Positions 9,282 to 55,420 of a DNA stretch of 64,000 nucleotides are shown in pieces. Made by a program: the position numbers and the translations under genes. A model generated the notes under the pieces. The model made no database searches. It saw only the letters and a list, made by a program, of their open reading frames with translations, and had not been told where the DNA came from. The first letter of the stretch is position 1. Each line of letters starts with the position of its first letter. Source of the stretch: Endocalyx cinctus (lineage: Eukaryota > Ascomycota > Sordariomycetes > Amphisphaeriales > Apiosporaceae); contig BCKC01000005.1 of the NCBI GenBank assembly GCA_001600455.1, forward strand, positions 806,001-870,000. Reading direction: 5' to 3'.

Positions 9282-11684
9282 TTAGTAAACTGCTGTCGCG
9301 AGTAGAAGCGCTCCGAAACTCGCCAACAAATATATAGGCGTAGCCAGCCGCGAAGATCCTGCGGTGACAACGGGAAACGCTGTGGGCTGGCTCGAAGTAG
9401 AGTTGCTGCCACCTAGAGTGGGATAGGTGCCGAATCCACTACCAGAGCCGCTGGTAGGCACGGCGGTGAGGAGGGTGGTGCCGATCGTGCTCGTTAAGGT
9501 GGATTGACCTCCAGGAATTCCGATAGCTGCGGTGCTGCTAGCACTGTTATCAGATCCACTTCCCGATCCGGATCCAGAGCCAGAGCTGCTGCCTCCAGTT
9601 GGGTACCCGTTGTTGCCACTGTCCGATCCAGAGCCTGATCCAGAACCAGAGCTAGAACCTGAGCTAGAACCCGATCCTGATCCAGAGCCGGACCCCGAAT
9701 CACTTCCTGAGCCACTGCCACCAGCCGGGTAATCACCACCGCTGCTGCCACTACCACTGTCAGATCCAGATCCACTGCCAGATCCGCTACCAGATCCGCT
9801 ACCAGATCCGCTACCAGATCCGCTACCAGATCCGCTACCAGATCCGCTACCAGATCCGCTGCCCGATCCACTTCCTGGAGTAGCTGTTATAGCAGCCGTA
9901 GCGGTAGTACCAAAAGTAAATGAAGTAGCTGTAGAGAAGCTGCCACTATTACCAGCCCCGGGAAGTCCAACTGCATCCGTAGCCGAGGTGCCGAGTTGTA
10001 CACCGGTGGCAGAGTAAGAGCCTCCAGCTCCACCATCGGTAGGAGTAGCCGTGATACCAGCGCCACCTGCTAGTCCACCACTAGCACCTCCTCCGATACC
10101 CCCACCGATACCTGCATCTCCAGTAGGACTAGCACCGATTCCAGCCGTGGCGCTAGCGCTGCCACCTAGGCCACCGCTCGCACCGCCGCCAATACCGCCA
10201 CCAATGCCGCCGCTAAGACCTCCGGTGGCACTGGCACCATCACCTAAGCCGCCGCTTGCGCCGCCATCCACTCCTCCTCCAATACCGCCACTAAGGCCCC
10301 CTGTAGCACCAGCATCTCCAGTTGGAGTTGCTCCGATTGCAGCAGTGGCGCTTGCGCTACCACCCAAGCCGCCATTAGCACCTCCCCCGATACCACCTGT
10401 AGCGCTAGCACCGCCTCCTGTACCAGCTCCTACACCTCCGCCAATACCTCCGGTGGCAGAAGCGCCTCCTCCGATACCACCGGAAACATCTCCTCCGAGG
10501 CCCCCTGTGGCAGAAGCACCACCACCAATTCCACCATTTGCGCCACCACCAATGCCCCCAGTGGCGCTGACACCTCCTCCGATACCACCAGATGCATCTC
10601 CTCCAACACCTCCGGTGGCACTAGCACCACCACCCAGGCCACCACCAAGGCCACCTCCAAGGAGACCTCCTAGACCAGATCCTAAACCTCCACCAAGGCC
10701 TCCTGAAGCAGAAGCACCTCCAGTAGGGTAAGATCCAATTCCTGCAGTGGCGCTCGCACCGCCTCCTAGACCGCCATTGGCGCCGCCGTCTACTCCTCCT
10801 CCAATACTTCCCGTAGCAGCTGCGCCGCCTCCCAGGCCGCCGCTGGCATCACCACCTAGGCCAGCGCCGAGGCCACCCGACGCACTAGCATCGCCGGTCG
10901 GGCTTACTCCGATAGCAGCGGTAGCGCTAGCGCTGCTTCCCAGACTACCGCTCGCGCCGGCACCACCGCTGATGCTGCCGCTGCCGAGGCTGATGCTGCC
11001 GTCCGCGTTACCCACGTTCACGCAGACGCCGCTGCCGACGAAGGCGGTAAGCCCGGCATCGAACTTGCCGGCCAAGCCGCCGACCAGTTGAAAGAGGGCG
11101 CTCAGCTCGCCGTTTCCGGTGAGAGAGAAGGTATTCGAGTCGAACGTCAGGCCGAGGCCACCCGAGATACCGACGACGGCCTGGAGCAGGGCGGCGGCGG
11201 CGGCTTTCACGTCGACGACGACGTCGGACATGAGGCCGCAGGATCCGAGCTGGATAACTAGATCTTTCTTGGCGGCCAGGGTGGCCACGAGGGTGCCTAT
11301 GGCGGATACGAAGGGAGTCACGCTCGTCGTAAGGCTGATCAGGTCCGTGAGAGATAGGCTGCCCGAGCCGGAGATGGAGGTTTTGGCTTCGCCGAATATG
11401 GATAAGACGGCTTCGATGGCTGTGACGAAGCTTTTGAGGTCGGCCTCGACGTTGATGTTAACCGCTGCTGTGTTGGCTAGGTCGAGTTTAGCACTGCACG
11501 ACGAGAGGGAGGATCCTACGACGCTCAAGCCACCCGTAAGTGAACCCCCGAGGATGCCGCTGAGGTCACCGCCGAGGCTCCCGCTACCGCCAAAGGTGCG
11601 CTCGGAGTTCTCGTGCAATTTCTGCATCTCGGCATGAGTGCCGAGAGCAAGGGAAACGAGAGTGATGGTCTGGAGGAACTTCAT
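9282..11684 (-). CDS. Gly/Ala/Ser-repeat GPI-anchored cell-surface protein
   Basis: One uninterrupted frame of 800 residues from ATG at 11684. Residues 1-18 form a classic signal peptide (MKFLQTITLVSLALGTHA). About residues 60-225 form an alanine-, valine- and leucine-rich helical domain with three Cys, comparable in character with HsbA-type or cell-wall mannoprotein domains, though not firmly matched. From about 235 to 560 come degenerate repeats of the type GGIGGGASATGG, then Ser-Gly dipeptide runs to about 740. The C-terminus ends in a hydrophobic tail (TPIYLLASFGALLLATAVY) behind small residues, as expected for GPI attachment. A role in the cell wall or at the surface is inferred. Repeat number probably varies between strains. 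Long open frames on the opposite strand (for example 10051-10731) are mirror images of the repeats. Confidence 0.85.
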   Translation of the reverse strand: MKFLQTITLVSLALGTHAEMQKLHENSERTFGGSGSLGGDLSGILGGSLTGGLSVVGSSLSSCSAKLDLANTAAVNINVEADLKSFVTAIEAVLSIFGEAKTSISGSGSLSLTDLISLTTSVTPFVSAIGTLVATLAAKKDLVIQLGSCGLMSDVVVDVKAAAAALLQAVVGISGGLGLTFDSNTFSLTGNGELSALFQLVGGLAGKFDAGLTAFVGSGVCVNVGNADGSISLGSGSISGGAGASGSLGSSASATAAIGVSPTGDASASGGLGAGLGGDASGGLGGGAAATGSIGGGVDGGANGGLGGGASATAGIGSYPTGGASASGGLGGGLGSGLGGLLGGGLGGGLGGGASATGGVGGDASGGIGGGVSATGGIGGGANGGIGGGASATGGLGGDVSGGIGGGASATGGIGGGVGAGTGGGASATGGIGGGANGGLGGSASATAAIGATPTGDAGATGGLSGGIGGGVDGGASGGLGDGASATGGLSGGIGGGIGGGASGGLGGSASATAGIGASPTGDAGIGGGIGGGASGGLAGGAGITATPTDGGAGGSYSATGVQLGTSATDAVGLPGAGNSGSFSTATSFTFGTTATAAITATPGSGSGSGSGSGSGSGSGSGSGSGSGSGSGSGSGSGSGSDSGSGSSGGDYPAGGSGSGSDSGSGSGSGSGSSSGSSSGSGSGSGSDSGNNGYPTGGSSSGSGSGSGSGSDNSASSTAAIGIPGGQSTLTSTIGTTLLTAVPTSGSGSGFGTYPTLGGSNSTSSQPTAFPVVTAGSSRLATPIYLLASFGALLLATAVY
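9778..9862 (-). repeat. 12-base tandem array encoding Ser-Gly
   Basis: About seven near-identical copies of cagatccgctac (plus-strand reading) encode the Ser-Gly run of the surface protein. Perfect identity of adjacent copies indicates recent expansion. Confidence 0.85.
10050..10960 (-). repeat. Degenerate Gly-rich coding repeats
   Basis: Repeats of roughly 30-60 bases encode GGxGGGASATGG-like units, with longer blocks ending in ATPTGDA, SPTGDA or YPTGGA that recur about every 60-110 residues. This suggests both short-unit slippage and block duplication. Confidence 0.7.
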
Positions 11685-21943: not shown

Positions 21944-22638
21944 CTGCGGCGATAATCAGATAATCCATCATTAAAAGGTATCAAAATATATCCATAGATG
22001 AATCCTTAGTCGAAAAAAAGGTGAGTTTTAAGGTAAAGATCACCTCAAAGCTTTTTAATGCTTTGGTCACTGGCCTGACGATGGTGTAGTCGAGTTAATA
22101 TATATGCATGAATTCAGGTAGGTAGGTAGTAGAGGTAGGTACTTACTCAATTTATTTGGTCACTGGCAGGCCTAGCAGGCAGTCTGGCAGGCAGGTACAC
22201 TAGGTTGCTAACAGCCGGACAGGCGACAGGGCTGACGGACTGACAGGGTAAGCTGAACCGAAAACTTAAAACAACCTAATTATCCTAGTGCGGGATCATG
22301 CGCTAAACCTAATTTGCTTCTCTATAGTCGGACGCGCTGCCAATAAATCCCGACGTGTATCAACATTGATTTAAATGAATCTTGAGATTTTATAATAATC
22401 AAAATCAATACATACTGAGAGAGAGAACAAGACAGAAGAATCTGCTAACTCGCTATAACTTGATTGATGATAAAACTAGAAACTAACTACATATAGCTTT
22501 GCGGGGTTTAACTAATAATAAAAGACTCTGGGTTAGTCATCTATTTAGCACCGCCACAATACTAAGTAATCATCTTAGATACCTCATATACCGGATCGAT
22601 AGTCTTCCCAAGCTATAAGAGAGCTCATTTACGTAGAA

Positions 22639-22827
<189 letters not shown>

Positions 22828-24389
22828 TGGCTTCATCCGTATTTACCTAACGAGCACAATAGGAGAAAAAAAAAGTATTTGAGAAACAGAAACAAAAAGA
22901 ACAAGTTATTCCTCAATTGCGTCTTATAAATATCACATTAATAACAATCCCTATTAAACGTTACTAGAACGTGGTTATTAACTTATTATAGATATTTATC
23001 TTCAATCCGCAAGGAGAGGAAGGTGAAAGATCATTGGCCCACATAAGACAGGTTTGTTCTCTCATCCGATTTTGTTTTTTATCCCATTTTCTTCTCTCAG
23101 ATATCATCGAATCCATCCGAAGCCGTGTCGCATATTCTTTTTTAGAAAGCGAAACTACTAGATGACAGAATTGATTTATTTCGAAACGTTTGAGCTCGGT
23201 AGTCTAATAGTGTAGAATCGCGATACCTTCCTCTTCGACGACAGCTTCGTTTCGCACTTTTCAAATAGAGAATCACTAGGAGCGGTGCTTCCATGTCGGT
23301 TTTCCTTATAATTCGGTCTTATTATTATATAACCCTCCTCCAACCAGGTATGCACCTAAACACAGCCACTTCTCTATGGTTCAAGCTGCAACCGGAAACA
23401 AAGTTTCCCTGGAGGAATATGAAATCACCTATATAGTATATAGGGTATTGACCGGTAAAAATTCTACGTCGAAATGCCAGCTCGGCTCGTTCCACGTGAG
23501 TTCTAGTGTGTTCTTCCTTTTCCTTATTTTTGGGTTGCTATATAGAAAGTTTGGTTGAGCACGGTTTGAGGCTCTGTTTGATCTACGAGGTTCGGCACCT
23601 CCACAAGCGTTTTGAAACTACCCCTTGAAATTGCACCCAAATATTTATGGGCCTCAAAAGAGGAATTCTCCTATACGTAGAGCCAAGATCGACTTGATCA
23701 GACTTGGCAAAAGTCTATTTTTCGGTGCACGAATTGATCACCTCAAAAGATCTCCTTAGATTTTCTCAGCGCCAATCCCCAACGCTGTATGTATGATCTG
23801 CCAGTTTGGGCATCTTATGTTATTCATCGGTGTTTTGTCCTTGGCATTGTCATTCCCCCTTTTATCGTCTAACTATAGTGGATCGTATAGCCTTCGCCCT
23901 GTCCAGCTGCCTTGGCTATGGCTCCCCCCCCCCCCCCCCGCCCCCCCCCGCTCCGTTGCTCTACGCGAAGGGGGACTAGGTATCCCAGGAGCAGTTTGGG
24001 AGAAATGACACCATGTGTATGGGTTAGACTCGAAAAAATTCTCCGCAGCGCCCCAGATCTTTGGATGGCTAGATACTCGAGGAAGTTCATCCCGTCCATA
24101 AATTGACCTCGTTTCCCTTTGCCGTTATCCGTTTTCTTCTCCTCATCCACACTTCATCATCTTAACATTTGGCATCAGGCATTCCTTTGACCGTTGTTTT
24201 CTTTAGAGGTAAGTCTACTACCGACTCTACTACCGACACTCTCCGGATGAGACGTCCGACTCTATCCCGCCTAACCCTCCGTTCCTCGATCGCTAACATA
24301 ACCTCTATTTTAGCTGTGCTCCGTTATTTTACTTTCACTTCAATTGGGTTTGATACTCTCCTTCTTTAAATTCTCCAACTCAATCTTTT

Positions 24390-24402
24390 TATATTTTTAT
24401 AT
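24390..24402 (+). promoter_or_regulatory. Weak candidate TATA element
   Basis: TATATTTTTATAT lies about 30-40 bases before the ATG of the secreted repeat protein, followed by a pyrimidine-rich leader ending in CAAC before ATG. A leader this short would be unusual, so the call is tentative. Confidence 0.25.
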
Positions 24403-24430
24403 CCCTCGGATTCACACTCTCTCCGTCAAC

Positions 24431-25569
24431 ATGAAGAACTTCGGAACCGTCCTCTTTTTCCTCGCCACCGGCGCCTCTTACGTAGCCGGTCTTCCCCACC
24501 CCGTAGGCCCGGGTGAGGTTGCCATGGTTGAGCCCCGATTCCCCCAGACCCTCGACACCCGTGCTCCCAAGAGGGGCAAGAAGACTAAGGCTGCCGCTGC
24601 TGCTGCTGCCGCCGCCGCTGCCGCCGCCGCCGCCGGCTCAAACTCCACCCTACTTGTATGTCTACCAAAAGCTATTCTGCCAAGGAGTGTTCGGTTACTA
24701 ATTCTTCTATTTACAGGGAGCTGACAACGCTACTGGTAATTGAGCCCCTCGTCTCTGCCATATTGACATATATCAACCGACTCACCCCTTCGAACGCGTA
24801 TGACTAACCAGAGTTCTCTCCTATATAGCTGCCGATGGTGCTGCCAACTTAGGAGCCGGAAATAACGTCCAAGCTGAGGGACTGTCGGACATTGTAAGTC
24901 ACCTTTAATTTACCTTCATAAACTTTCTTACTCTCAGGCTACGGCATGCTAATATACCATAGCTCGGCGGACTTCTCGGCGGCAACGACAATGCCAATGC
25001 CGATGCCTCGGGCGGATTATCCGGCCTCGTAAGTCAACAGCACTTTATTTCGTTTTGGTCTCTTCTAATAGAAGCCCTGCTAACTTAATGCAGCTGGGTG
25101 GATTGACTGGACTTTTGGGCGGCGGTGATGCCGCTAACAGTACCGGTAACGGTCTGCAAGATATTGTAAGACAATACTCGATCTATCTTTACAGAAAGCA
25201 TTTTTGCTAACCCCTTCGCCCAATAGCTCGGTGGACTCCTTGGCGGTCTTACTGGTTCTGCCAGCGATAACGCTTCTGGTGGTGGCTTGTTGCAAAGTCT
25301 TGTAAGTCGTGACTCCCATGTCTATACTTTACGAATTATGAAACTAACCGATTTTTTAGTTGGGTGGCCTTTTCGGAGGCAACAACGGCAACGCTGCCGC
25401 TGATCCCGCCGCAACTGCTACTGCTAGCGTCGCCGCCCCCGCCGCCACTTCTGCTGCCGCCGACGTCGCCGCTCCTGCTGTCACTTCTGCCCCTGCTGCC
25501 GTCGCCGATCCTGCCGCCACTCCCGCCGCCAAGGCCAACGGGCTCGCCGAACTCCTTGGCGGTCTCTAA
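24431..25569 (+). CDS. Small secreted Leu/Gly-repeat protein, one exon per repeat
   Basis: Seven exons (24431-24655, 24717-24735, 24829-24893, 24963-25028, 25094-25165, 25227-25301, 25360-25569) encode 243 residues. Residues 1-20 or so are a signal peptide (MKNFGTVLFFLATGASYVAG). A dibasic KR at 47-48 could be a Kex2 site, followed by GKKTK and 15 alanines. Exons 4-7 each begin with LGGL followed within a few residues by another Leu/Gly segment (LGGLLGG, LGGLTGLLGGG, LGGLLGGLTG, LGGLFGG), and most end in a hydrophobic dipeptide at a phase-0 gtaag donor. The last exon adds an Ala-rich tail and ends NGLAELLGGL. Four N-x-S/T sites are spread along it. Introns are 58-93 bases. No known family is recognised; a wall or secreted structural or effector-type role is possible. 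Confidence 0.75.
24963..25301 (+). repeat. Three tandem duplicated exons in phase 0
   Basis: Exons of 66, 72 and 75 bases, each starting with CTC/CTG GG(C/T) GGA and flanked by phase-0 introns of 58-69 bases. Any of them can be gained, lost or skipped without changing frame. The pattern indicates exon duplication together with its intron. Confidence 0.75.
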
Positions 25570-26190
25570 AGAAATAAAGGCAAATCCCGCGTCGAGAATA
25601 TACGATAAGGTAAAACCTATTCGTCTCACGCCAGTACCTCATTTGAGTTATGTATACAATGAGTGACGTCGACTATGTATCAAGACGTGTACTCCAACAT
25701 ATTTCTTTTTTTTTTTGTAATTTTTAAAGGGTTCGGTTAGATAGACAGCAAAGCGTCGGTCGGTTATCTGGGTTGATTTCATCGGTTGGTTTGTTCCATT
25801 CCTATGGGGCTTACTGGAACCGTGTAAGATATCTCTTCATTGTGTCTCTAAAGGGAAGACATGAAAAATTTGACAAACTGATGACCATATATATCTGTCT
25901 TATGTTTTTATACCAAGTGAAAATGTGCTAGAATGAAAATTATGAATTTTCGGAATGTTCTCCTTGCAGATTTATCTTTTAATGTGATGGCCTGAAAAGT
26001 GTTGTCGAAGATACTGAATAAACATATCCAATGAATTTCTTACATTGACATGTATATCTTTCCCGTGCATTGTTCCTATTCCCATAACCGTCAAATTATC
26101 TTCTCTTCTCTCATTACGCAAGCAACAAGTTTATTTAAGTAGTTTCTCAATATACATTCAAGCGTATTTAAAAGAAAATATTCACTCCCG
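25570..26190. other. Convergent spacer
   Basis: 3' flanks of the secreted repeat protein (plus) and the ATRR-like gene (minus). AT-rich, with a T run near 25706-25716. No gene seen. Confidence 0.6.
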
Positions 26191-29100
26191 TCAAATCGGC
26201 TCGTCCCTCGGCTCGATTAGCACCTCGTTCACCGCGACATGTTCAGGCTGGCTAAGCGCGTAAACAATAGCATTCGCCACATCATCCGCGTCAAGCACCT
26301 TTGCGCCCGTAGGTTCACCGTACTTTTTAATAGCCTCGGCATCGGTCGACATACCTAACAGCTCCGTCGCCGTGTTTCCGGGCTGTACCGAAGTGACCCT
26401 CAATCCCGACCCGGCCGTCTCCAAACGCAAGCTCTGCAAAGTAGCCTCGACGAAGAACTTGCTCGCCGAGTAGACCCCCAACCCGGGAAACACCTTCCGT
26501 CCCGCGTCGGACGATATGGCCACGACGTGGCCCTTCCCGCGCGCCAGCATGCCCGGAACGGTCGAGGCGAGGCAGTGCAAGAGCCCCTTGCAGTTGACGT
26601 CGACGGTCCGATCCCACTCCTCCGTTTGCACGTTCGCCATCATGGTGTAGTACATGACGCCCGCGCACGAGACCAGCACGTCTACGTCGCCCAGCGCCGA
26701 CGCCGTCTCCCGCACGAGAGCTTCTACCTGCGCCCGGTCCGTGACGTCGGTCGCGTGCGCCAGGAACTTACCCCCACCCCCTAGTCCCGCCATCTTCGCC
26801 TTGAGGGATTCGAGCGCTTCGACTCGTCGCGCGGCGACGGCAACGTTGGCGCCTGAGCGAGCGAGCGCTAGCGCCACCGCCGCTCCAATACCGGAGGAAG
26901 CCCCCGTAACGACGGCGACACGGCCTGCTAGGGGTCCCGTCTTCTTCGTGTTCTTCTGTTCGCCCTTATCGCTCGCGAGCGCGTCGTCCCCGCCGTCTTC
27001 CAGATGCACGGGAAGCCGAGGAAGCCAGCCCCTGGCGCAGAAGTGGCGCGCGTACGTCTCCAGCAGCTTAGCGTCGATCTTGGGCCTCTCGAGCCCCGCT
27101 TTCGTCAGGAGGGGACCCGTGGCCGGGTCTTTCAGGACGACGACCCACTCGAGGAAGTCCGCCGTCGGCATCCCGCGCCGGAGGAGGTCGGCCGTGAAGA
27201 TGTTGTCCTTGGACTGGTGGGCGCGGCCCCGCTTCTCGTCCCACAGCGTTACCCACTCGTCCCACGGCAGCGGCCGCGTCGGGTAGCCTAGACGGGCTAG
27301 GATGGCGAAGACCTCTCCGGTCGACACGGGGTCCGGGTCGCCGACGTGAAATACCCGCCGACCCCCGGCTTCGACGTCGTCGACGTCCGCGAGGGACAGG
27401 ATCGCTTTGCTGACGAAGTCAGCCGGAGTCATCTCGGCGTACCAGTCCTTGATGTCGGGCGCGAACCCGAGTTGCAGCGACTCCACGACCAGGGCGTTGA
27501 GCATGTCGTACGTGTTGCTCGAGCCCGAGGTGCTGTGTCCGCTGATGGTGCCAGGGCGGTAGATTCGCGCGGGCAATCCCCTCTTGCCAGCCTCGACGAT
27601 GAGTTGTTCGGCTATCCACTTAGTTTGACCGTATCCGTCCAGCAGCTTCGCAGGTACGTCGTCGACATCAACCATAGCATCCTCGCACCACCCTTTTTTC
27701 ACGGGGGAACTTGGCGGCAGCACGCCGTTGGTCGAGACGTGGTGGACGGTAGCGCCCGCGAGGCACGCCAGCCGCAGCACCTCGCGCGTGCCGAACACGT
27801 TGGCCCCTTGCATCGCCGCGTACGGGTACACGAGGTTGACGGTGGCGGCCGAGTGGACGATGACCTGGACGCGGGAGGCCAACTCGTCGAAGACGTCCGG
27901 GGCCAGTCCGAATCGCTTCCGCGCCAGGTTGGCCGGCAGGACCTCGATCCGGCTGAGTATGCCGTCGTTCCAGAGGCCCAGGTCGAGCAGGTTACTCCGC
28001 ACTCGGGCGAGCCCGGCGGCGGGGCTGGTACTGGTGAGGTCGGCAAACCGGACGACGCAGATTATTTTGGCCGACGTCGTCTCCAGCAGATTGCTGAGGA
28101 GGAAGGCTCCCAAGAATCCGGTCGTGCCGGTCAGTAGGACCGTCTTCGCTTCGCTGAGTCGGCACATTTTGGTTTCCGAAGAAGGCTTGATGTCGGCCGG
28201 CAGGATGGAGTCCGCTCGCAGCACCTTGGGCAGGTCAGCTTGAAGGGCAGCTGTGTGTCCATCTCGAGCATCGAGCACGGCCTTCAGGTGTCCCTCGAGC
28301 GTGGGATTTCCAGCGAGTCGCGCAAGAGGTACGGGAAACCCGAAAGCACCGGTCAACTTGGTGACGAGGTCAACGAGCGCTAAGGAATGACCGCCCAAAT
28401 CAAAGAAATCATGATCCTGTTTCATGACAGATTCGTACGAAGCGCTCAACGAAGAAACCCAAAGCTTAGCAATGTCCTTAAGGGAAATCTTCAGGTCGCT
28501 GTCTTTCGTGGCACCGTTCCCGTTCAACTTGGTAGAATTTTTAGTCGATCTCGTCGGCGAGGGAAGCCTTTTCAGATCGACCTTGCCCGAAACTTCGTGA
28601 GTCGGGAGGTAGTCCACTTTCATCCACAGGGCGGGAATCATGTAGTGCGCGAGGTGTTCTGATAGCACGCGCCTAGCCATGGGACTAAATCCGGAATCGT
28701 CTATAACGACTTGAGGTCTGTCCGCCGTCTCCTCTCTGTCGGGGACAACATACGCGAGCAGCTGACGGTCGAGCCCATCACCGTAGGAAGTGACGGCGCA
28801 GTGGCCCACCGCCAAATGCTTCACTATTGCATTTTCTACCGCGCCCGGCTGAACGCTATAACCTCGGATCTTAATCATAGATCCGACACGACCGGTGATC
28901 TCGAGAAGACCCGAAGGAAGTAACTTGGCGGTATCGCCTGTCCGGTAAGCACGTGCTCCAGGAGTCGGATCAAACGGGTCGGGTATGAAAGCCTTAGCGG
29001 TGATATCGGGAAGATTGAGGTAACCACGAGCGAGCATTTTGCCTCCAATCAGAAGTTCGCCGCTATCTCCGGTTTCGACCTTTTTCCCATCTTCATCCAC

Positions 29101-30120
29101 AATATACGAATGCTCAATGTCAATGGGAGGGCCGACGGGAACGACCCGGGCGTCTTTATCAAACATCTCTCGGATATCTCCACAGGCGATTTCATGAGTC
29201 TCGCTAGCGCTGTAACAATTAAGTAAACGCGCATTTGGCAGGGCTTTCAAGCCTCGGCTGGCAAGATCGGTGGTGACGACCTCACCGTTAAGCCATACCG
29301 TTCGCAGATCTTTGAGTCTATTACCTAGCTGCGAGTGTCGGGCGAGGACCGTTGCCAGCAAAGTGGGAGTCATTAAAGTCTCGGTAATACGCTTGGAACG
29401 TAGTAGCTCCACGAGAGCGGCAGGGTCATAACTAGTCTCGTCCGGGACCGTAACCACCGTAGCGCCTCGAAGCAACGGACGGAGTATTTCCCATACGAAA
29501 AAGACGTTACAAGCTACCCGGTCGCCGGGCTTGAGATCGCTAAGTCTAAATCTCAAATCGTAAGAGAGCACGGGCGCCCTATGAGGATTTGCGATCCCTT
29601 TAGGGCGTCCCGTAGTGCCGGAAGAGTACGAAACAAAGGCAAGTCGCTCCAAATCATCTTCAGCAGGCAAAGGAAGCAGTTCATCAGACGATCCGTTGGT
29701 CACGGAGCTGCCATTTGTGTCCGGTACTTCTTCATCGAGTATAATCAGGGGCATCTCGCCCTTGATCTGACCCTCGTGGGCACGATGAGTAATAATAACA
29801 GTAGGTCGAGCATCCTCAATCACATCGGCTAGCAGACCCGGAGGATAAGCAAGTTCGAGAACAAGGAAAGCACCACCGGCTCTCAGTGCCGCCAGACAGG
29901 AGATGACATAATCAGCGCTTCTTCCCAGGAGCACACCGACCAAGTGATCTCGACCGACGCCGCAACGGCGAAGACGACTGGCAAGAAAGTCAACCTTTCG
30001 ATCCAACTCGGCATATGTCAAGCTTAGAGGCCCGTCTTCCAGGGCCACGAGGTCGGGCGTGGAGCTAACTTGGCTCGAAAAGAGCGCGGATAAGTCCTTA
30101 GTGGTGGTGATGATCGACAT
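26191..30120 (-). CDS. NRPS-like A-T-R-SDR enzyme, probable glycine betaine reductase (ATRR type)
   Basis: Single exon, 1309 residues from ATG 30120 (MSIITTTKD); the frame extends further upstream but without ATG. Adenylation domain about 10-520: A3 SYSSGTTGRPKG at 164-175, A5 NCYSASETHE at 301-310, AYRTGD at 391-396, and the catalytic Lys in SGKVDLKRLP near 513. Carrier domain: DLGGHSL with phosphopantetheine Ser at 579. Thioester reductase about 655-1040: TGTTGFLG at 664-671 and Y830-x3-K834. C-terminal short-chain dehydrogenase about 1065-1309: TGASSGIG at 1072-1079, Ser 1203/1204 and Y1217-x3-K1221. The A4 region reads NVFFVWE, so the Asp that binds an alpha-amino group is replaced. Known fungal ATRR enzymes activate glycine betaine and reduce it twice to choline in the cytosol. 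The order of domains fits that group; substrate identity is inference. Confidence 0.8.
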   Translation of the reverse strand: MSIITTTKDLSALFSSQVSSTPDLVALEDGPLSLTYAELDRKVDFLASRLRRCGVGRDHLVGVLLGRSADYVISCLAALRAGGAFLVLELAYPPGLLADVIEDARPTVIITHRAHEGQIKGEMPLIILDEEVPDTNGSSVTNGSSDELLPLPAEDDLERLAFVSYSSGTTGRPKGIANPHRAPVLSYDLRFRLSDLKPGDRVACNVFFVWEILRPLLRGATVVTVPDETSYDPAALVELLRSKRITETLMTPTLLATVLARHSQLGNRLKDLRTVWLNGEVVTTDLASRGLKALPNARLLNCYSASETHEIACGDIREMFDKDARVVPVGPPIDIEHSYIVDEDGKKVETGDSGELLIGGKMLARGYLNLPDITAKAFIPDPFDPTPGARAYRTGDTAKLLPSGLLEITGRVGSMIKIRGYSVQPGAVENAIVKHLAVGHCAVTSYGDGLDRQLLAYVVPDREETADRPQVVIDDSGFSPMARRVLSEHLAHYMIPALWMKVDYLPTHEVSGKVDLKRLPSPTRSTKNSTKLNGNGATKDSDLKISLKDIAKLWVSSLSASYESVMKQDHDFFDLGGHSLALVDLVTKLTGAFGFPVPLARLAGNPTLEGHLKAVLDARDGHTAALQADLPKVLRADSILPADIKPSSETKMCRLSEAKTVLLTGTTGFLGAFLLSNLLETTSAKIICVVRFADLTSTSPAAGLARVRSNLLDLGLWNDGILSRIEVLPANLARKRFGLAPDVFDELASRVQVIVHSAATVNLVYPYAAMQGANVFGTREVLRLACLAGATVHHVSTNGVLPPSSPVKKGWCEDAMVDVDDVPAKLLDGYGQTKWIAEQLIVEAGKRGLPARIYRPGTISGHSTSGSSNTYDMLNALVVESLQLGFAPDIKDWYAEMTPADFVSKAILSLADVDDVEAGGRRVFHVGDPDPVSTGEVFAILARLGYPTRPLPWDEWVTLWDEKRGRAHQSKDNIFTADLLRRGMPTADFLEWVVVLKDPATGPLLTKAGLERPKIDAKLLETYARHFCARGWLPRLPVHLEDGGDDALASDKGEQKNTKKTGPLAGRVAVVTGASSGIGAAVALALARSGANVAVAARRVEALESLKAKMAGLGGGGKFLAHATDVTDRAQVEALVRETASALGDVDVLVSCAGVMYYTMMANVQTEEWDRTVDVNCKGLLHCLASTVPGMLARGKGHVVAISSDAGRKVFPGLGVYSASKFFVEATLQSLRLETAGSGLRVTSVQPGNTATELLGMSTDAEAIKKYGEPTGAKVLDADDVANAIVYALSQPEHVAVNEVLIEPRDEPI

Positions 30121-31250
30121 GATTCCTTGTCGAAATGTAGGTAACACGAAAATGAGCGAGTGTTGCCGAGCGACTGTGACGTTAAATAACTGATGGCTTA
30201 TGTTAATTGGAATATTATAATATTCAAGTCTTAATTTGGTAATGCTAAACTTTATGAGATTGTCAAATATCTTCCTGGATGCAAGGGACACAATTCTAGA
30301 AGAGAATGATGAGTTTGTAGATCTCGATGAAAAGGAGTTCAGGCTCGTGACCTCACTCCTCTACACCTACGAAAAGGACAAAGTGAAGAGATTCTTTCGA
30401 GTTTTTTTCAATTACATTAGGAATAAAAGATTGATTTTAAAGTCAATATAGTTCAATGGATGATGTAGGTAATGTGTTATGCGCATGTGGGTGGAGCGAC
30501 CATGAATAGCCAAGTAGTCAACTAGCACACGAATGTTTAGGTAGTGTAGATCTAAGGCAAGTCTTTACCGCTACAAGCCGATTAACGGCTTTCCTCATTC
30601 TCATCCACTTAGTTGAAATTCTACAGTAGGATAATTCACGGCCTTTTCGCTAAATAGGGGGCGACATGTTTTTACGGAAAGAGTCTTCCTACCACGATAA
30701 AGGGTTACCTCGTCACAAGGCAATGTGTGGCAATGGTTAGGAATGAGGAGCCGACGAAGATCCATTATTTCAACATGGAAATTACCAAAAACCACATTTC
30801 TTACGTAGATAAATACTAACTTTTAAGAACTGTGACGTAGAAGTTACAGTTCAAGATCAAGATATTGCCGGGTAGTTTGTTGGGATTCGGAAAGACAAAC
30901 GAATGAAAGGTATTTTGATGATCTTGGTGGTCTGCGATACAGGGGCTTGGCGTGCATAGTCCTTCGCCCAGTACAGCAGTTCCTTACTTTTGTACCCTAC
31001 TAGCACGCCCTGAGTCGAGTTGTCCAGACCTATTCTTATTCGAGCCGAACCTAACAACTCCGTCAGGGTCCAATCCTAGTGGACTGGAATCCCCCACTCT
31101 ATCACATCATCCCCGGCCTTCGCAAAACAACTGACCTATGGTTGAAAGCTGTTTCGGAACCAATCCGACGTGAGCCCGGGTTCGAAGAAGATTCAGAGCC
31201 GCACCATTGCCCTTTTGGCTCGCTCTATCTCTCTCTCCCCCTCCCCCCCC

Positions 31251-39548: not shown

Positions 39549-41306
39549 TTATTTACTTCGTAACGCATCCTTAAGAAGCAGACCTGGTACCCCAGCTCTG
39601 CTTCCATCCATCGTGGCTATGGCATGTTCGACGTCACCCTCGTCACCATCTGTTTCCCCCTTCTTACCTTCGTCGCTGACAAGAGTCGAAGAACCTGTCC
39701 AACTCCACTTATTAGTAAACTCGGGCGGCCGACGACCAACGATGCAGTCAACGACGCAGTCGCCCAGTATAGGTAAGAACTTGAACGCGTGGCCGCTGCC
39801 TCCGGTGGCGACGAATAGACTCTTGTCCGACGCCCCGGGGTGGTAGTCGACGATCCAGTCCCCCGTCGCCGTGTCCGTGTACCAGCAGAGCCTAGTCTTG
39901 GAGAATTGTCGGGTATCCGGTAGGTCAAGCCAGGGAACGAATTTCTTCAAGGCTGCGCGGAGAGCGGTTTCAGCTTCGGGAGGAATCGAGAGGTTGGGGT
40001 CGGATAAGTGGGTGTGAGGTACCGAGACGGTCCTCGTCTTGGTCGCCTTCTCTGAAGAAGGGGAAGCGATGGTCGTCGGGTTGAGATATCCGAACGAGTG
40101 TTGCGCGATCTTGAGCACCCCGTTTCGAGGAGGGATGATGAACATTCCTTGTGATATGTTGAACAAGACCGGATTTTTTTCTAGCTTGGCTTGCTCTTCC
40201 TCCGTGATGTCCAGGTACGCCACGATCTGTCCCGTCGCGATTGCTTGCGACGATAGGTCGATGAGGGAGGGGGTCCAAGCTCCGGCGGCTAAGATTACGA
40301 GGTCGGCTGATAGTACCTCACTATCTTCTCCGTTTCCGAGGCGGGCGCCCGTTACGCGCGTCCCCGTCATCTCGAACGCCTTCGCCGTCCCGTTCACGAA
40401 TTTCACCCGCCCCGTCGCTACCACCTGATCATACAGCCACTTCATGCTCCTCTCGGCGTCGGCCCATCCGCTAGCTTCGTTCAGATATCCACACTCGGCG
40501 AACTCGCCTCCGCTTCCTCCTAGTAAGGCGATGCCCTGGCTGTTCCGCACCATACGGATCGAGGAGAGGGCACGGCCTTCCTTGAAGGCCAAGGCTAGGG
40601 CGTTGACCCAGCTCTTCTTCATGTACCATATACCCGAACGCTTCTGCGGCTGCGTTTCCGTCGCCGTCGCCTCCCTCGCGTTATCTCCCGGGGTATTCGC
40701 ACCGTCGAGGTTCTGACTCTTTTTTTCTTCTGCTACTTCCTTGCGCACTTCTTCTTCCGCCGCTTTCGGTGGTGCAAACGCCGCCTTTTGCCTCTCTTCC
40801 TCGGTGTCGTAGTCGGCCGCGAGCAGGAGTCCGCTCTGGGTATACCTGCCGTCGCCGCCCAGCGACTTCGGGTCCTCCATGCCGTCGCGCCATCGCACCG
40901 ACGCCTTGGAGGCGAGCGCGGCGTACGCGGGGTCGGCGTAGTCGGCCCGGATTATGCGCGACGAGTCGATCGAGGACGCGTCCCGGGCGGGGAAGACGCC
41001 CGGCTCGGGGGACCGGTCGAGGATGGTTATCTGCGTCGAGGAGAACTCGGGTCGCTTCGTCAGGGCCCAGGCCGTGGAGAGGCCGAAGACCCCCGAGCCG
41101 ATTATGAGGATGCTGGAGGGAGGTTGGAAGCTCTCATCTGCGGCGGTGTTGGCGGCGTCGGTAGAAGCGGCGGGGTCGCTGTTTTTCTCGTTAGTCGCGG
41201 TCTCCTTTGTCCCCGGCTCGTCTAACCCTTCACGCGTCAAGCTCAGGTTCGAGAGAGAGGATAGGAGCGGAACTGGACAGCTGGTAGCGGCTCCTGGAAG
41301 GGTCAT
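39549..41306 (-). CDS. FAD-dependent amine oxidase of the DAO family (fructosyl-amino-acid or sarcosine oxidase-like)
   Basis: Single exon, 585 residues from ATG 41306. An unusual acidic Ser/Thr/Asn-rich leader of about 60 residues precedes the FAD-binding ILIIGSGVFGLSTAWAL (GSGVFG at 70-75). FPARDASSIDSSRIIRADYAD matches the flavin and substrate region of fungal amadoriases and sarcosine-type oxidases. Further along are CWYTDTATGDWIVDYHPG and the C-terminal ATGGSGHAFKFLPILG, both typical of the group. A charged, low-complexity insert (about 185-240, rich in Glu, Lys, Ala) interrupts the domain and is probably a surface loop. These enzymes oxidise secondary amines to imines with release of peroxide. 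The precise substrate (fructosyl amino acid, sarcosine, pipecolate) cannot be told. The divergent neighbour is SR140, with an 822-base shared promoter region. Confidence 0.85.
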   Translation of the reverse strand: MTLPGAATSCPVPLLSSLSNLSLTREGLDEPGTKETATNEKNSDPAASTDAANTAADESFQPPSSILIIGSGVFGLSTAWALTKRPEFSSTQITILDRSPEPGVFPARDASSIDSSRIIRADYADPAYAALASKASVRWRDGMEDPKSLGGDGRYTQSGLLLAADYDTEEERQKAAFAPPKAAEEEVRKEVAEEKKSQNLDGANTPGDNAREATATETQPQKRSGIWYMKKSWVNALALAFKEGRALSSIRMVRNSQGIALLGGSGGEFAECGYLNEASGWADAERSMKWLYDQVVATGRVKFVNGTAKAFEMTGTRVTGARLGNGEDSEVLSADLVILAAGAWTPSLIDLSSQAIATGQIVAYLDITEEEQAKLEKNPVLFNISQGMFIIPPRNGVLKIAQHSFGYLNPTTIASPSSEKATKTRTVSVPHTHLSDPNLSIPPEAETALRAALKKFVPWLDLPDTRQFSKTRLCWYTDTATGDWIVDYHPGASDKSLFVATGGSGHAFKFLPILGDCVVDCIVGRRPPEFTNKWSWTGSSTLVSDEGKKGETDGDEGDVEHAIATMDGSRAGVPGLLLKDALRSK

Positions 41307-51864: not shown

Positions 51865-53277
51865 TCAAAGTACCATAGCGGGGTCGCAACCACCCAAGCT
51901 CGCGCTTTTAGCCTTTCCCTCCATGACGATCTCGCTAACCAGTTTTCCCGTTCCTGGCGCGTTTTGTATACCCCAGCAGGTATGACCGGCGGCAACGACG
52001 AGCCCTTCTATTCCGGGGACCGGTCCGATGAAAGGACCTCCCTGAGGTAGGTAGCAAGCCTGCCGAGCGAGTACCTCACCTTGAACGCCCAGCTCGTCGC
52101 TGACGGCGCCCACCTGCCTCACTATATCGGCGCACCTCCCCGGATCGACCTTGACCTCCATCGTGGTGACGGGTAATTCTTCGTACTCGTCCGTGGGCCC
52201 GCAAGCGTACGCCGTCCCGTCCGGCCGCGCGTAGATCTCGGGCTCGACCGACTGCGGCTTCTTCAGCGGTTTCGGGTCGTTACCTTCGGTCTCCGCGCGG
52301 GAAGAAGTCGAAGGAGAAGGGGACGGGAACCCAGCGGGTAGCGAGATGGACGTGAACAGCGCGTAGGCCGATACCGGACGCGGCGTGCGCACCACCACGC
52401 TGTGGGCGCGGGACGCGCGGACGGGGATCTGCGGGAGAAGGCGCGAAGTCCAGGGTCCGGCGGCGACGACGCAGCGGTTCGCCGTCAACGTCTTTTCCAC
52501 TTCCTCTTTGGCTCCTCCTCCTTCTTTGGCGAGATACGTCACGCTCTCGACGGATTTCTTGCCCTCGCCGTCGCGGTAATTAATCGACGTCACGCGCGCG
52601 CCTGTGACGATGTTCACGCCCGCATCCGCCGCCAGCGAGGCCATCGCCCGCGTGAACAGCTCCGGATGCACCTGCGCGGTATCCTCGGGGGTCCCGATCC
52701 CGTCGTATCCGCGCACCGAAGGCGGGTTCACCCAATCGAGGTCGTCGGGGGCGCCCAGACGACGCAAGGCGCCGTCGTCGAGCCTGTGGTCCTTGTGCAG
52801 GCCTTTCGTCGTCTTCTCGCCTTTCGCCTCTTCGGGGTTAACCGGCTTCGGAACAGACGACGGCAGCCGGGCGACGCAATCGACCTGGCTCGCCCAGCAT
52901 CGTCGGTACCCCCACCTCTCGTCGCCGCCGTGCTCCCGCGCCAGCTCCTCGTGCAGCCGGAAGCTCAGCGGTACGATGTTCCGCGGGAAGGCCCACAGCG
53001 CGAGCAACCCGCCGGCTTTGCCGCTCGCGCCGCCGGCGATCCCCGCGTGCGCCGGGTTCGAGATGGGGTCGGCTCCGGGGCTGAGGAGGGTGGACGCTTC
53101 GCGCAGGCTTTCCGCGGTGCGTCCCCCGTCGCTGTGATGGGCGGCCTCGAGGAGGGTGATCCGGTGCCGGGAAGGGTCGTAGGACGGGTGGCGCGTTAGG
53201 TAGTACGCCGTGCTGCATCCGATGATACCCCCGCCTATTATGGTGATTTCTTTTTTGGAGGCGGTGGCGACGGACAT
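51865..53277 (-). CDS. TDA3-like FAD-dependent oxidoreductase
   Basis: Single exon, 470 residues from ATG 53277; the frame runs further upstream without ATG. Near the N-terminus ITIIGGGIIGCSTAYYLTRH is the FAD-binding loop. GGASGKAGGLLALWAFP follows at about residue 80, with the conserved ASGKAGG characteristic of the yeast TDA3 group. A charged low-complexity insert (PKPVNPEEAKGEKTTKG) and another near 320 (SPSPSTSSRAETEGND) lie in probable loops. The C-terminus GHTCWGIQNAPGTGKLVSEI closes the flavin site. Yeast Tda3 is linked to endosome-to-Golgi recycling; its enzymatic substrate is unknown. Fungal relatives are often filed as sarcosine or D-amino-acid oxidases, which is less certain. High GC contrasts with flanking DNA. 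Confidence 0.85.
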   Translation of the reverse strand: MSVATASKKEITIIGGGIIGCSTAYYLTRHPSYDPSRHRITLLEAAHHSDGGRTAESLREASTLLSPGADPISNPAHAGIAGGASGKAGGLLALWAFPRNIVPLSFRLHEELAREHGGDERWGYRRCWASQVDCVARLPSSVPKPVNPEEAKGEKTTKGLHKDHRLDDGALRRLGAPDDLDWVNPPSVRGYDGIGTPEDTAQVHPELFTRAMASLAADAGVNIVTGARVTSINYRDGEGKKSVESVTYLAKEGGGAKEEVEKTLTANRCVVAAGPWTSRLLPQIPVRASRAHSVVVRTPRPVSAYALFTSISLPAGFPSPSPSTSSRAETEGNDPKPLKKPQSVEPEIYARPDGTAYACGPTDEYEELPVTTMEVKVDPGRCADIVRQVGAVSDELGVQGEVLARQACYLPQGGPFIGPVPGIEGLVVAAGHTCWGIQNAPGTGKLVSEIVMEGKAKSASLGGCDPAMVL

Positions 53278-55420
53278 TCTCACGTGGGCGAATCTTCTTT
53301 TGAAGAAAGAAGAAGGGGGGAAAAGAAGCGAAGTATAGTAAGAGAGGGAAGTCAGAAAATAACACACAGGCAATTAATTGACTCGTGATTCTTATATGCC
53401 TTCTGTTTCTCTACGGTGGGGTTGTTCGCAGCGCAGACTGGTGGGGTTAGGTATAGTTGCCTACCCGTCGCAGTCATTCTCCGGTGAGGCAAGACGAGGT
53501 GGATGGATACTACGTCATAGGCTGATAGGTTGGTTTATAGTTGATTTGTGGGGACAACTCGTTACTTCTGACTTTTCACTAATACGATACTCCTCGAGGT
53601 AATCTATCTCAGTAACCTTCTATTTGTATTGGACTGCGATGTAACATCATCAACGTCAAAGATGTGAATTTCATGGCCAGCCAAAAAAAAAAAAAAAAAT
53701 CATCTCTATTATTTTGATGACCGGAGCACCGAAACCTGAGGTCCACTTCTCGGTATGATTCATCCTTTCAACTATCCCGACATAATCTTATCATCCCCGA
53801 AGACTTAATGGAAAATATTAAGATAAGTGATGTGGCGTGATATGACCTCTGTCTCACAGACGATTGATCTTGTCCGTAGACTCCATTCGATATATTTAGA
53901 AGAGATGCATCAACGAACTATTTCCTTTGCTGATTCACTATAGCGCCTGGAAGAAAGAAAATTCAAGAGTGATGATTTTCTATCACGGTCTCCTAGTTCT
54001 ACTTGACAAAATGCCAGTATTATAGCTGGAAGGTCTTGGCTATATCTTTCAAGTCGCGCTGTCCTTTCCAGCCTTAACATCTGTGATCTTGGTTAATGGT
54101 TGTTGACTTGAGAGGCTCATGCGAACCTGGCATCGACCTGACTGGTGACTTGAGGGCCCTAGATACTTAAGGTATCCTTATTCCGCCTTCAAACTCCGTT
54201 CACATGTGCGGCTTTAAGGAAGTTACTAGGTTGAACAACAGCGTCACTAGACTAAGTGTATGGAATCCACACCAGTCTTTCATACATACAGGACATCTTG
54301 ATGTGTTCAAACCATCCTGGCTACCGTGTCTGCGGAGAAGTACCTAGCACAAAAGAATCTAAGGGTAAATTCGGAGGGGCTCGTTAAATTGATAACACCG
54401 CTCATGATATTTCTTCCATCCTCAAGGAGAATTGTTGAAAACGCAATTTTCCATTTGAAAATACACATATTTAGGCTATGCTGCGCGAGCTTTGTCACAT
54501 CTAGATCATGTATAAGAACTGAAAGAAAAGAATTGAAGACTTCATCATAATATCGATCAGGGCGATGAATGGGTTATCCTATTCGGATGCCCAGATTTTC
54601 CGAGCGAATGATCATATCACGGCATCAATGTGTAATGACGCTTCTGCGAGATAATGGTGAGAGGAAGTATGCTCATTTGCCTACCTTCCATCACATTTAT
54701 TAAGCCATTCGTATTATCCCCTTGACCCCCACCAGCACGATGCTCTACCATTTTACTCGAGTCCTGAGAGACATTTTAATATATCTGAGATGAAAATTCA
54801 ATGGAATATGACTTTTTTTATAGGAGAGTTACCGACACCCCCCAATGTTCCATTTTGCCCGCCGTGACCCCTCAATATATCCATCCCCATAAATTGCCAA
54901 GTGATCGGGAAATTTGACCTGCTGGACATTGATTCTTGATTTCCTTAAGTGAATCTGCTATAGGTACACCAAGCAGGCTTTGAGCGTGGTGATCGCCAAA
55001 CGACTACTACCGGTAGGTTAGATTAAAAGTGAGGATACACCTTGGCGAGCGGCTGCTTTGGGTAATAATGAATGTGCTGCCGGATATTTCGTCAATACCC
55101 GGCACACGTGGTAAGGGTTGGTTTCTTTTCTTCCACCAAGGAAAGATAAGCTGGGAAGAGAAAAGAACTTCATTTACTTACTTGATATGACGTTGGGGAA
55201 ATCGGAATGTTTGGTTTTGGAATTCTTGTGTATCTATATATCTAGGCTTCCCAAGCTAGTGGAATGGATCCAACCCCCTTCCCCTTCCGCCTCCTTTTTA
55301 TTGTAACTTAGAAGTACCGGGTGGACCATAAAAAGGTCACGATTAACTTCTTTTTAAAAAAGACAATACCCCCGTATTACGTGCCGTATTCCTATTTCAT
55401 TTTGGTTTATTATAGTGAAA
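53278..55420. other. Intergenic region upstream of two divergent genes
   Basis: No gene recognised over 2.1 kb. It contains an A run at about 53682-53699. It should hold promoters for the TDA3-like gene (minus) and the quinoprotein-like gene (plus). Confidence 0.55.

What the first reader, a model, noticed from the sequence alone, without database searches (positions are those of the whole stretch)
24431..25569. Secreted protein whose repeats are single phase-0 exons that can be skipped without frame loss
Seen: exons 4, 5 and 6 are 66, 72 and 75 bases, all multiples of three, flanked by phase-0 introns, and each starts with LGGL; exon 7 starts the same way. The signal peptide, dibasic site and poly-Ala tract are confined to exon 1. 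Inference: repeat number could change by exon duplication at the DNA level or by exon skipping at the RNA level, giving a family of secreted length variants. No named family matches.
Basis: partly seen in the sequence, partly recalled or inferred. Interest (0 to 1): 0.75.

Follow-up and report, generated by a model that had tools for sequence, protein, structure and literature searches.

The report
Fungal secreted protein, one repeat per exon
A small fungal gene for a secreted-type Leu-Gly/Ala-rich protein keeps each copy of its repeat in its own exon, so exons could in principle be dropped without harm, but the sequence suggests an old, stably spliced gene rather than a machine that makes variants.

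Summary
A predicted seven-exon gene at 24431-25569 encodes a 243-aa secreted-type protein. Introns 3-6 cut at the same phase-0 point inside a repeated block, [IL]|LGGL. Exons 4, 5 and 6 (66, 72, 75 nt) can be dropped in all seven combinations without frame loss. The register is far beyond chance (2e-8, or 2e-6 if introns are restricted to phase 0). I add that the junction splits the block, so any skip rebuilds it, and that a fifth block closes the protein without an intron.

The inference is only partly supported. Introns 3-6 share no convincing similarity and no two of five exon units share an exact run over 9 nt: the duplication looks old. Repeat donors are GTAAG and repeat introns 58-69 nt, which predicts routine splicing; exon skipping was infrequent in the one fungal survey whose passages I read. 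No paralogue, Pfam family or fungal homologue was found.

Best reading: an orphan, probably well-expressed, disordered, amphipathic coat or wall-type protein built by ancient exon duplication. A schistosome-MEG-like variant generator remains untested and possible (about 0.1). No transcript data were available.

The parts
24209..24313 (+). candidate 5'UTR intron (GTAAGT ... CTAAC ... TTTTAG)
   Evidence: consensus signals only; inference
24431..24655 (+). exon 1: signal peptide (by eye, residues 1 to about 20), propeptide ending at a KR (Kex2-type) site 47-48, 15-Ala tract 54-68, NST sequon
   Evidence: signal peptide and Kex2 site judged from sequence, no predictor run
24717..24735 (+). exon 2, 19-nt microexon (with exon 3 forms an in-frame 84-nt pair ending GLSDI)
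   Evidence: skipping it alone brings a stop at codon 83
24829..24893 (+). exon 3, 65 nt, starts in phase 1, ends GLSDI
24963..25028 (+). exon 4, 66 nt, LGGLLGGNDNANADASGGLSGL
25094..25165 (+). exon 5, 72 nt, LGGLTGLLGGGDAANSTGNGLQDI
25227..25301 (+). exon 6, 75 nt, LGGLLGGLTGSASDNASGGGLLQSL
25360..25569 (+). exon 7: LGGLFGG unit, Ala/Pro/Thr/Val-rich tail, C-terminal fifth block NGLAELLGGL, stop
   Evidence: its end shares 15 exact nt with exon 6
24894..25359 (+). span of introns 3-6 (24894-24962, 25029-25093, 25166-25226, 25302-25359), all phase 0 with GTAAG donors

Best explanation
An orphan gene of a filamentous fungus for a secreted, cysteine-free, Leu-Gly/Ala-rich and probably disordered protein. 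It is made of hydrophobic blocks (of the kind GLxDI-LGGLLGG) separated by polar Asn/Asp/Ser linkers. The repeats arose long ago by tandem duplication of an exon with its intron; because the intron sits inside the hydrophobic block, every added exon was frame-neutral and rebuilt the block. Today the exons are routinely joined into one 243-aa precursor. After signal-peptide removal and Kex2-type cleavage at KR 47-48, the mature chain is secreted and acts as a structural or surface-active coat or wall component through its amphipathic blocks. Shown: anatomy of the predicted gene, register, frame neutrality, divergence of units. Inferred: duplication history, constitutive splicing, secretion, processing, abundance, disorder and surface role.
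For: Register 4 of 4. Exon start spacings 134, 131, 133, 133 from exon 3 on; exon and intron lengths compensate, the tightest of 24 pairings (weak, n=4). Exon DNA similar for 4 of 10 pairs of exons 3-7 (4/6, 4/7, 5/6, 5/7: at most 1% of 400 shuffles reach the score), in part through the LGGL start (family D3). Introns diverged and no exact run over 9 nt between any two of five units: old duplication. All four repeat donors are GTAAG (4 occurrences in 24400-25600, all at unit ends; 45 on the + strand of the window). Third-base G at four-fold sites is 0.01, against 0.09-0.39 in nine other window ORFs and 0.00-0.09 in GAPDH and two elongation-factor-type matches of the same genome (L021-L024). 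Whole-CDS codon score +0.205 bits per codon, above the best of 178 windows from nine ordinary genes (0.051) and within the 0.10-0.42 of the four left-out reference pieces. This fits a well-expressed gene. No cysteine, and both dibasic sites in exon 1.
Against: The codon signal is carried mainly by exons 1 and 7 (+0.30, +0.36 per codon); residues 70-185 score only +0.04 and exons 3 and 4 are negative (-0.20, -0.40), so high expression is moderate evidence and may partly reflect how Ala tracts grow. The duplication itself is not proved: introns 3-6 retain no clear similarity (best pair 5/6, p 0.018 of 15 pairs), and 6 of 10 exon pairs are not similar at the 1% level. No transcript, localisation or homologue evidence was available or found.
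Confidence: 0.6

Rival explanations
1. Splicing-based variant generator: exons 4-6 (and the 2+3 pair) are skipped in regulated or stochastic fashion, giving secreted length variants, as proposed for schistosome micro-exon genes.
For: 7 of 7 combinations of skipped exons 4-6 keep the frame; the block is rebuilt at each new junction; exons 2+3 together are also frame-neutral. Signal peptide and processing site lie in a first exon that would always be kept. Even with all three skipped, two LGGL motifs remain.
Against: Short introns with strong donors predict intron definition (general knowledge, recalled); exon skipping was infrequent in the fungal survey read in passages (PMC8942408). Frame neutrality follows from repeat duplication without any selection for skipping. 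Exons of 66-75 nt are longer than the 15-bp exons that are the majority in MEGs (PMC10526429 passages).
Confidence: 0.12
2. DNA-level length polymorphism: strains differ in the number of LGGL exons by exon duplication or loss.
For: The array must have changed copy number at least historically; uniform spacing of 131-134; 15 exact nt shared by exon 6 and the C-terminal block. In Sclerotinia SsGSR1, an allele lacking one Gly-rich repeat occurs in field isolates and loses activity (PMC10269696 passages).
Against: No two exon units share more than 9 exact nt, and introns are diverged, so slippage or unequal crossing-over has little homology. [quoted passage not shown]
Confidence: 0.13
3. Repeats came first inside one exon, and introns were later inserted at the same site of each repeat (parallel intron gain or introner-like elements).
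For: A fifth block at the C-terminus has no intron. Introns 3-6 are mutually dissimilar, as independent gains would be.
Against: Four independent insertions at the same base and phase are less economical than duplication of an intron-bearing unit; recent introner copies should be near-identical (recalled) and these are not.
Confidence: 0.12
4. The gene model is wrong in part (exon 2 or other boundaries), or the region is an unexpressed relic.
For: No transcript data; 19-nt exon 2 rests on frame logic and a weaker donor (GTAATT); no homologue to check against.
Against: All six introns have donor, branch and acceptor signals; exon/intron GC alternates sharply; splicing gives one open frame from start to stop; codon bias is non-random.
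Confidence: 0.03

Closest known systems
Schistosoma mansoni micro-exon genes (MEGs); passages of PMC10526429 and PMC4350168 seen
   Same: Secreted protein; core in short exons that are mostly multiples of three; frame-neutral skipping possible.
   Different: MEG exons 3-81 bp, mostly 15 bp, 10-20 per gene, introns 0.1-5 kb, 35 genes coding for at least 87 verified proteins. Here 66-75 nt repeat exons, 58-69 nt repeat introns, one gene, no isoform evidence, a fungal host; no sequence comparison with MEGs was run.
Sclerotinia sclerotiorum SsGsr1 (PMC10269696, passages)
   Same: Ascomycete secreted protein with Gly-rich repeats; unit number can matter for function.
   Different: GPI-anchored, 11-aa repeats. 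The word exon does not occur in its main text. The units here are diverged and interrupted by introns.
SP7-like effectors of arbuscular mycorrhizal fungi (PMC11333574, passages and section 6)
   Same: Signal peptide plus imperfect repeats; an intron stands before the first repeat.
   Different: Hydrophilic repeats with conserved islands and an NLS in several members. [quoted passage not shown] found there only in Glomeromycotina.
AGL proteins of Glomeromycotina (PMC8786786, passages)
   Same: Secreted, disordered, Gly/Ala-rich, lineage-specific; short first exon carrying the signal sequence.
   Different: P/G-rich with predicted GPI anchor, one or two introns only, repeats explained there by tandem duplication of DNA within the gene.
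Aphid bicycle effector genes (PMC9168663, passages)
   Same: Secreted orphan-like proteins defined by gene structure: many small internal exons in one uniform phase.
   Different: Insect, about 17 exons, phase 2, CYC motif; this protein has no Cys and its repeat exons are phase 0.

Membership tests
Micro-exon genes (MEG) | Most of the coding region in very small symmetrical exons | tested here: inconclusive
   Exons 4-6 symmetrical (213 of 732 nt); exons 2 and 3 symmetrical only as a pair (84 nt); exons 1 and 7 (435 nt) are ordinary
Micro-exon genes (MEG) | Alternative splicing yields variant proteins | not testable with these tools
   No transcript data held
Micro-exon genes (MEG) | Long introns (0.1-5 kb) | tested here: not met
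   Introns 58-93 nt; range from PMC10526429
SP7-like effectors | Hydrophilic imperfect repeats ending in a conserved island, NLS in several members | tested here: not met
   Repeats centre on a hydrophobic LGGL block; no SP7 sequence was aligned
Hydrophobins | Eight cysteines (recalled) | tested here: not met
   0 Cys
Kex2-processed repeat proteins (recalled) | Dibasic cleavage sites between repeats | tested here: not met
   Only dibasics are 47-48 and 50-51, before the repeats
DUF937/YidB (PF06078, PF20159) | Profile match | tested here: not met
   Proteins with these labels match weakly, E 9e-4 to 9; Pfam scan of the protein gave 0 families at E<=1
GPI-anchored Gly-rich wall proteins (SsGsr1 type) | C-terminal GPI signal | tested here: inconclusive
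   C-terminus GLAELLGGL is only a short hydrophobic end; no GPI predictor available
Introner-like elements | Near-identical introns (recalled) | tested here: not met
   15 intron pairs within the gene, best p 0.018; introns were not compared with the rest of the genome
Bicycle effectors | CYC motif and phase-2 internal exons | tested here: not met
   0 Cys; repeat exons phase 0

The most novel reading that the evidence does not exclude
A fungal counterpart of schistosome micro-exon genes: a secreted coat protein whose hydrophobic-block number is set by combinatorial inclusion of frame-neutral, one-repeat exons, with every repeat splice junction lying inside the repeated block so that any combination rebuilds it. 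Up to eight in-frame isoforms from exons 4-6, or sixteen by arithmetic if the exon 2+3 pair also varies.
Probability: 0.1. Interest if true: 0.75.

Novelty: new member of a known kind. Interest (0 to 1): 0.38.

Why it matters
Exon-per-repeat genes are familiar in animals (recalled), but I did not meet one among small secreted fungal proteins in the listings (capped lists, mostly titles and abstract starts; most subscription papers are not held). If the exons are skipped, fungi would have a simple route to secreted protein variants. If not, it is still a clean case of what looks like an old exon-intron duplication kept in protein register after clear intron similarity has gone, and a warning that frame neutrality alone does not show alternative splicing.

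Tried and rejected
Homology: full-protein search gave 4 hits at E<=0.01, which I judge unrelated (bacterial-type domains); repeat region at E<=10 gave 50 hits, of which 46 carry PF06078 (DUF937), one PF20159 (named YidB/DUF937), one PF04391 and two no label, which I read as shared LLGGLLGG composition. In both searches only the roughly 8000 candidates sharing most words were scored, so a divergent orthologue could have been crowded out. N-terminal 54 residues: 6 candidates, none at E<=10. Whether that database covers this fungus's relatives was not tested, so 'orphan' is provisional. Own genome: only self exons with the full protein (6 of 6 matches), residues 1-57 (1 of 1) and the repeat part (4 of 4). 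Acceptor+LGGLxGG motif: 8 matches in 44.8 Mb; 4 are this gene within 420 bases, the other 4 lie singly on four other contigs, against 4 for the control pattern. I looked at those four (the reverse-strand one, L013, was translated only on the other strand) and list ORFs for one, L008, where an open frame runs antisense; none is part of an LGGL series. The motif is strict and would miss diverged units. Viral contigs: none of 38 stretches confirmed. PDB: 2 weak matches, E 0.021 and 0.026, not followed up.

A first exact 20-mer genome search used a guessed sequence that is not in the gene; its 0 matches mean nothing. Organism: not identified; 'filamentous fungus' is inferred from intron type, genome size and gene content. 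The paper search aimed at pentahydrophobins listed 8 of 103,656 papers, none of them on hydrophobins by title. One search ended in an error on its last line after printing the reference-gene statistics.

Full report
Observation. I re-read 23400-26600 and rebuilt the gene. Seven exons of 225, 19, 65, 66, 72, 75 and 210 nt join to a 732-nt CDS and a 243-aa product. All six introns are GT-AG, 58-93 nt, with a CTAAC/CTAAT-type branch site. Introns 1, 3, 4, 5 and 6 are phase 0 and intron 2 is phase 1. Exon GC is 54-69% and intron GC 35-46%.

Chance. The four introns after exon 3 each fall on the first base of an LGGL. Six LGGL start points exist in the protein, all in that region; random placement of four introns would hit them with probability about 2.3e-8 (0 of 2 million simulations), or 1.9e-6 if only phase-0 positions are allowed. 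The motif was picked after seeing the gene. Symmetric length of three exons alone is unimpressive; the register is what matters.

Refined anatomy. The junction contexts are GLSDI|LGGLLGG, GLSGL|LGGLTGLLGG, GLQDI|LGGLLGG and LLQSL|LGGLFGG. The intron therefore splits one hydrophobic block, and polar Asn/Asp/Ser linkers lie in mid-exon. A fifth block, NGLAELLGGL, ends the protein without an intron. Exons 2+3 (84 nt) end in GLSDI and may be a decayed further unit split by an extra intron (inference). All seven ways of skipping exons 4-6 stay in frame without a premature stop, as does skipping 2+3 together; skipping 2 or 3 alone does not. There is no cysteine, four N-glycosylation sequons, and dibasic sites only at 47-48 and 50-51. 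A candidate 5'UTR intron lies at 24209-24313.

Age of the units. Exon start spacings from exon 3 on are 134, 131, 133 and 133. Exon and intron lengths compensate more tightly than any other of the 24 pairings, which is suggestive but rests on four points. Of 10 pairs among exons 3-7, four are similar at DNA level (4/6, 4/7, 5/6, 5/7: at most 1% of 400 shuffles reach the score); 3/5 and 3/6 are marginal at 4% and 2%; 3/4, 3/7, 4/5 and 6/7 are not similar. Part of the similarity is the LGGL start. Introns are not alike: of 15 pairs only 5/6 is marginal by local alignment (p 0.018), and 5/6 and 2/6 at 0.03 by global alignment, about what 15 tests would give by chance. The longest exact run between any two of the five exon units is 9 nt (exon 7 taken for its first 133 nt); exon 6 and the C-terminal block share 15 nt, possibly because both encode LLGGL. 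The duplication is therefore read as old, and the present array offers little homology for further unequal exchange.

Expression hints. Of 62 Ala codons 39 are GCC, 22 GCT, 1 GCA and 0 GCG; four-fold third-base G is 0.01, against 0.09-0.39 in nine other window ORFs. GAPDH and two elongation-factor-type matches of the same genome (L021-L024) show 0.00-0.09, and the three other matches of the GTP_EFTU_D3 search (L025-L027) 0.20-0.35 (gene names beyond the Pfam hits are my reading). A codon score trained on four pieces (GAPDH in two pieces, two elongation-factor-type ORFs) against nine ordinary ORFs gives +0.205 bits per codon for the whole CDS, above the best of 178 windows of the ordinary genes (0.051) and within the left-out reference pieces (0.10, 0.40, 0.41, 0.42). 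The signal sits mainly in the Ala-rich exons 1 and 7; residues 70-185 give only +0.04, and exons 3 and 4 are negative. Three window ORFs (9282, 47988, 50200) were kept out of the training and scored -0.32, -0.79 and -0.63. Good expression is thus likely, not shown.

Relatives. No Pfam family, no convincing homologue in three protein searches, no paralogue found in the genome, and the acceptor-plus-LGGLxGG motif occurs in series only here: 4 of 8 genome matches, the other four single on other contigs, control 4. The bacterial DUF937 hits are compositional in my judgement. How well the protein database covers this fungus's kin is unknown, and searches scored only the roughly 8000 candidates sharing most words.

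Mechanism. Most likely the product enters the secretory pathway, is cut after KR 47-48, and serves as an amphipathic, disordered coat or wall component, with block number fixed by the gene. [quoted passage not shown] other surveys listed were not read). The frame neutrality follows from duplication of a phase-0 unit and needs no selection for skipping. The variant-generator reading is not excluded, because no transcript evidence was available.

Comparison. It works most like MEG or bicycle genes in structure (PMC10526429, PMC4350168, PMC9168663; passages) and like Gly-rich repeat wall proteins such as SsGsr1 in composition (PMC10269696; passages), but I file it under none: it lacks the long introns of MEGs, the CYC motif and phase 2 of bicycle genes, and the identical core repeats of SsGsr1. 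SP7-like effectors have one conserved intron before the first repeat (PMC11333574, section 6), and AGLs one or two introns (PMC8786786, passages). LGGLLGG occurs in three held papers, none on fungi by title and abstract start (search listing).

Noticed in passing
9282-11684 (-): An 800-aa open frame with an HsbA domain (PF12296, E 4e-10) followed by long GGLGGGASATGG-type and GS repeats in one uninterrupted frame: a Gly-rich secreted-type repeat protein about 13 kb from the focus gene, without the exon-per-repeat layout.
   Followed up: partly
26191-30291 (-): NRPS-like enzyme with AMP-binding, PP-binding, NAD_binding_4 (thioester-reductase type) and a C-terminal short-chain dehydrogenase in one frame, tail to tail with the focus gene.
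   Followed up: partly
39549-41306 (-) and 51865-53373 (-): Two FAD-dependent oxidoreductase (DAO, PF01266) open frames within 11 kb of each other.
   Followed up: no
22570-22836 (-) and 23924-23949: Long Ser/Leu simple-repeat frame upstream of the gene, and a poly-C run.
   Followed up: no
25530-25569: The C-terminal block shares 15 exact bases with the start of exon 6, the longest identity among the unit and block pairs compared; perhaps a later copying event, perhaps codon coincidence.
   Followed up: partly
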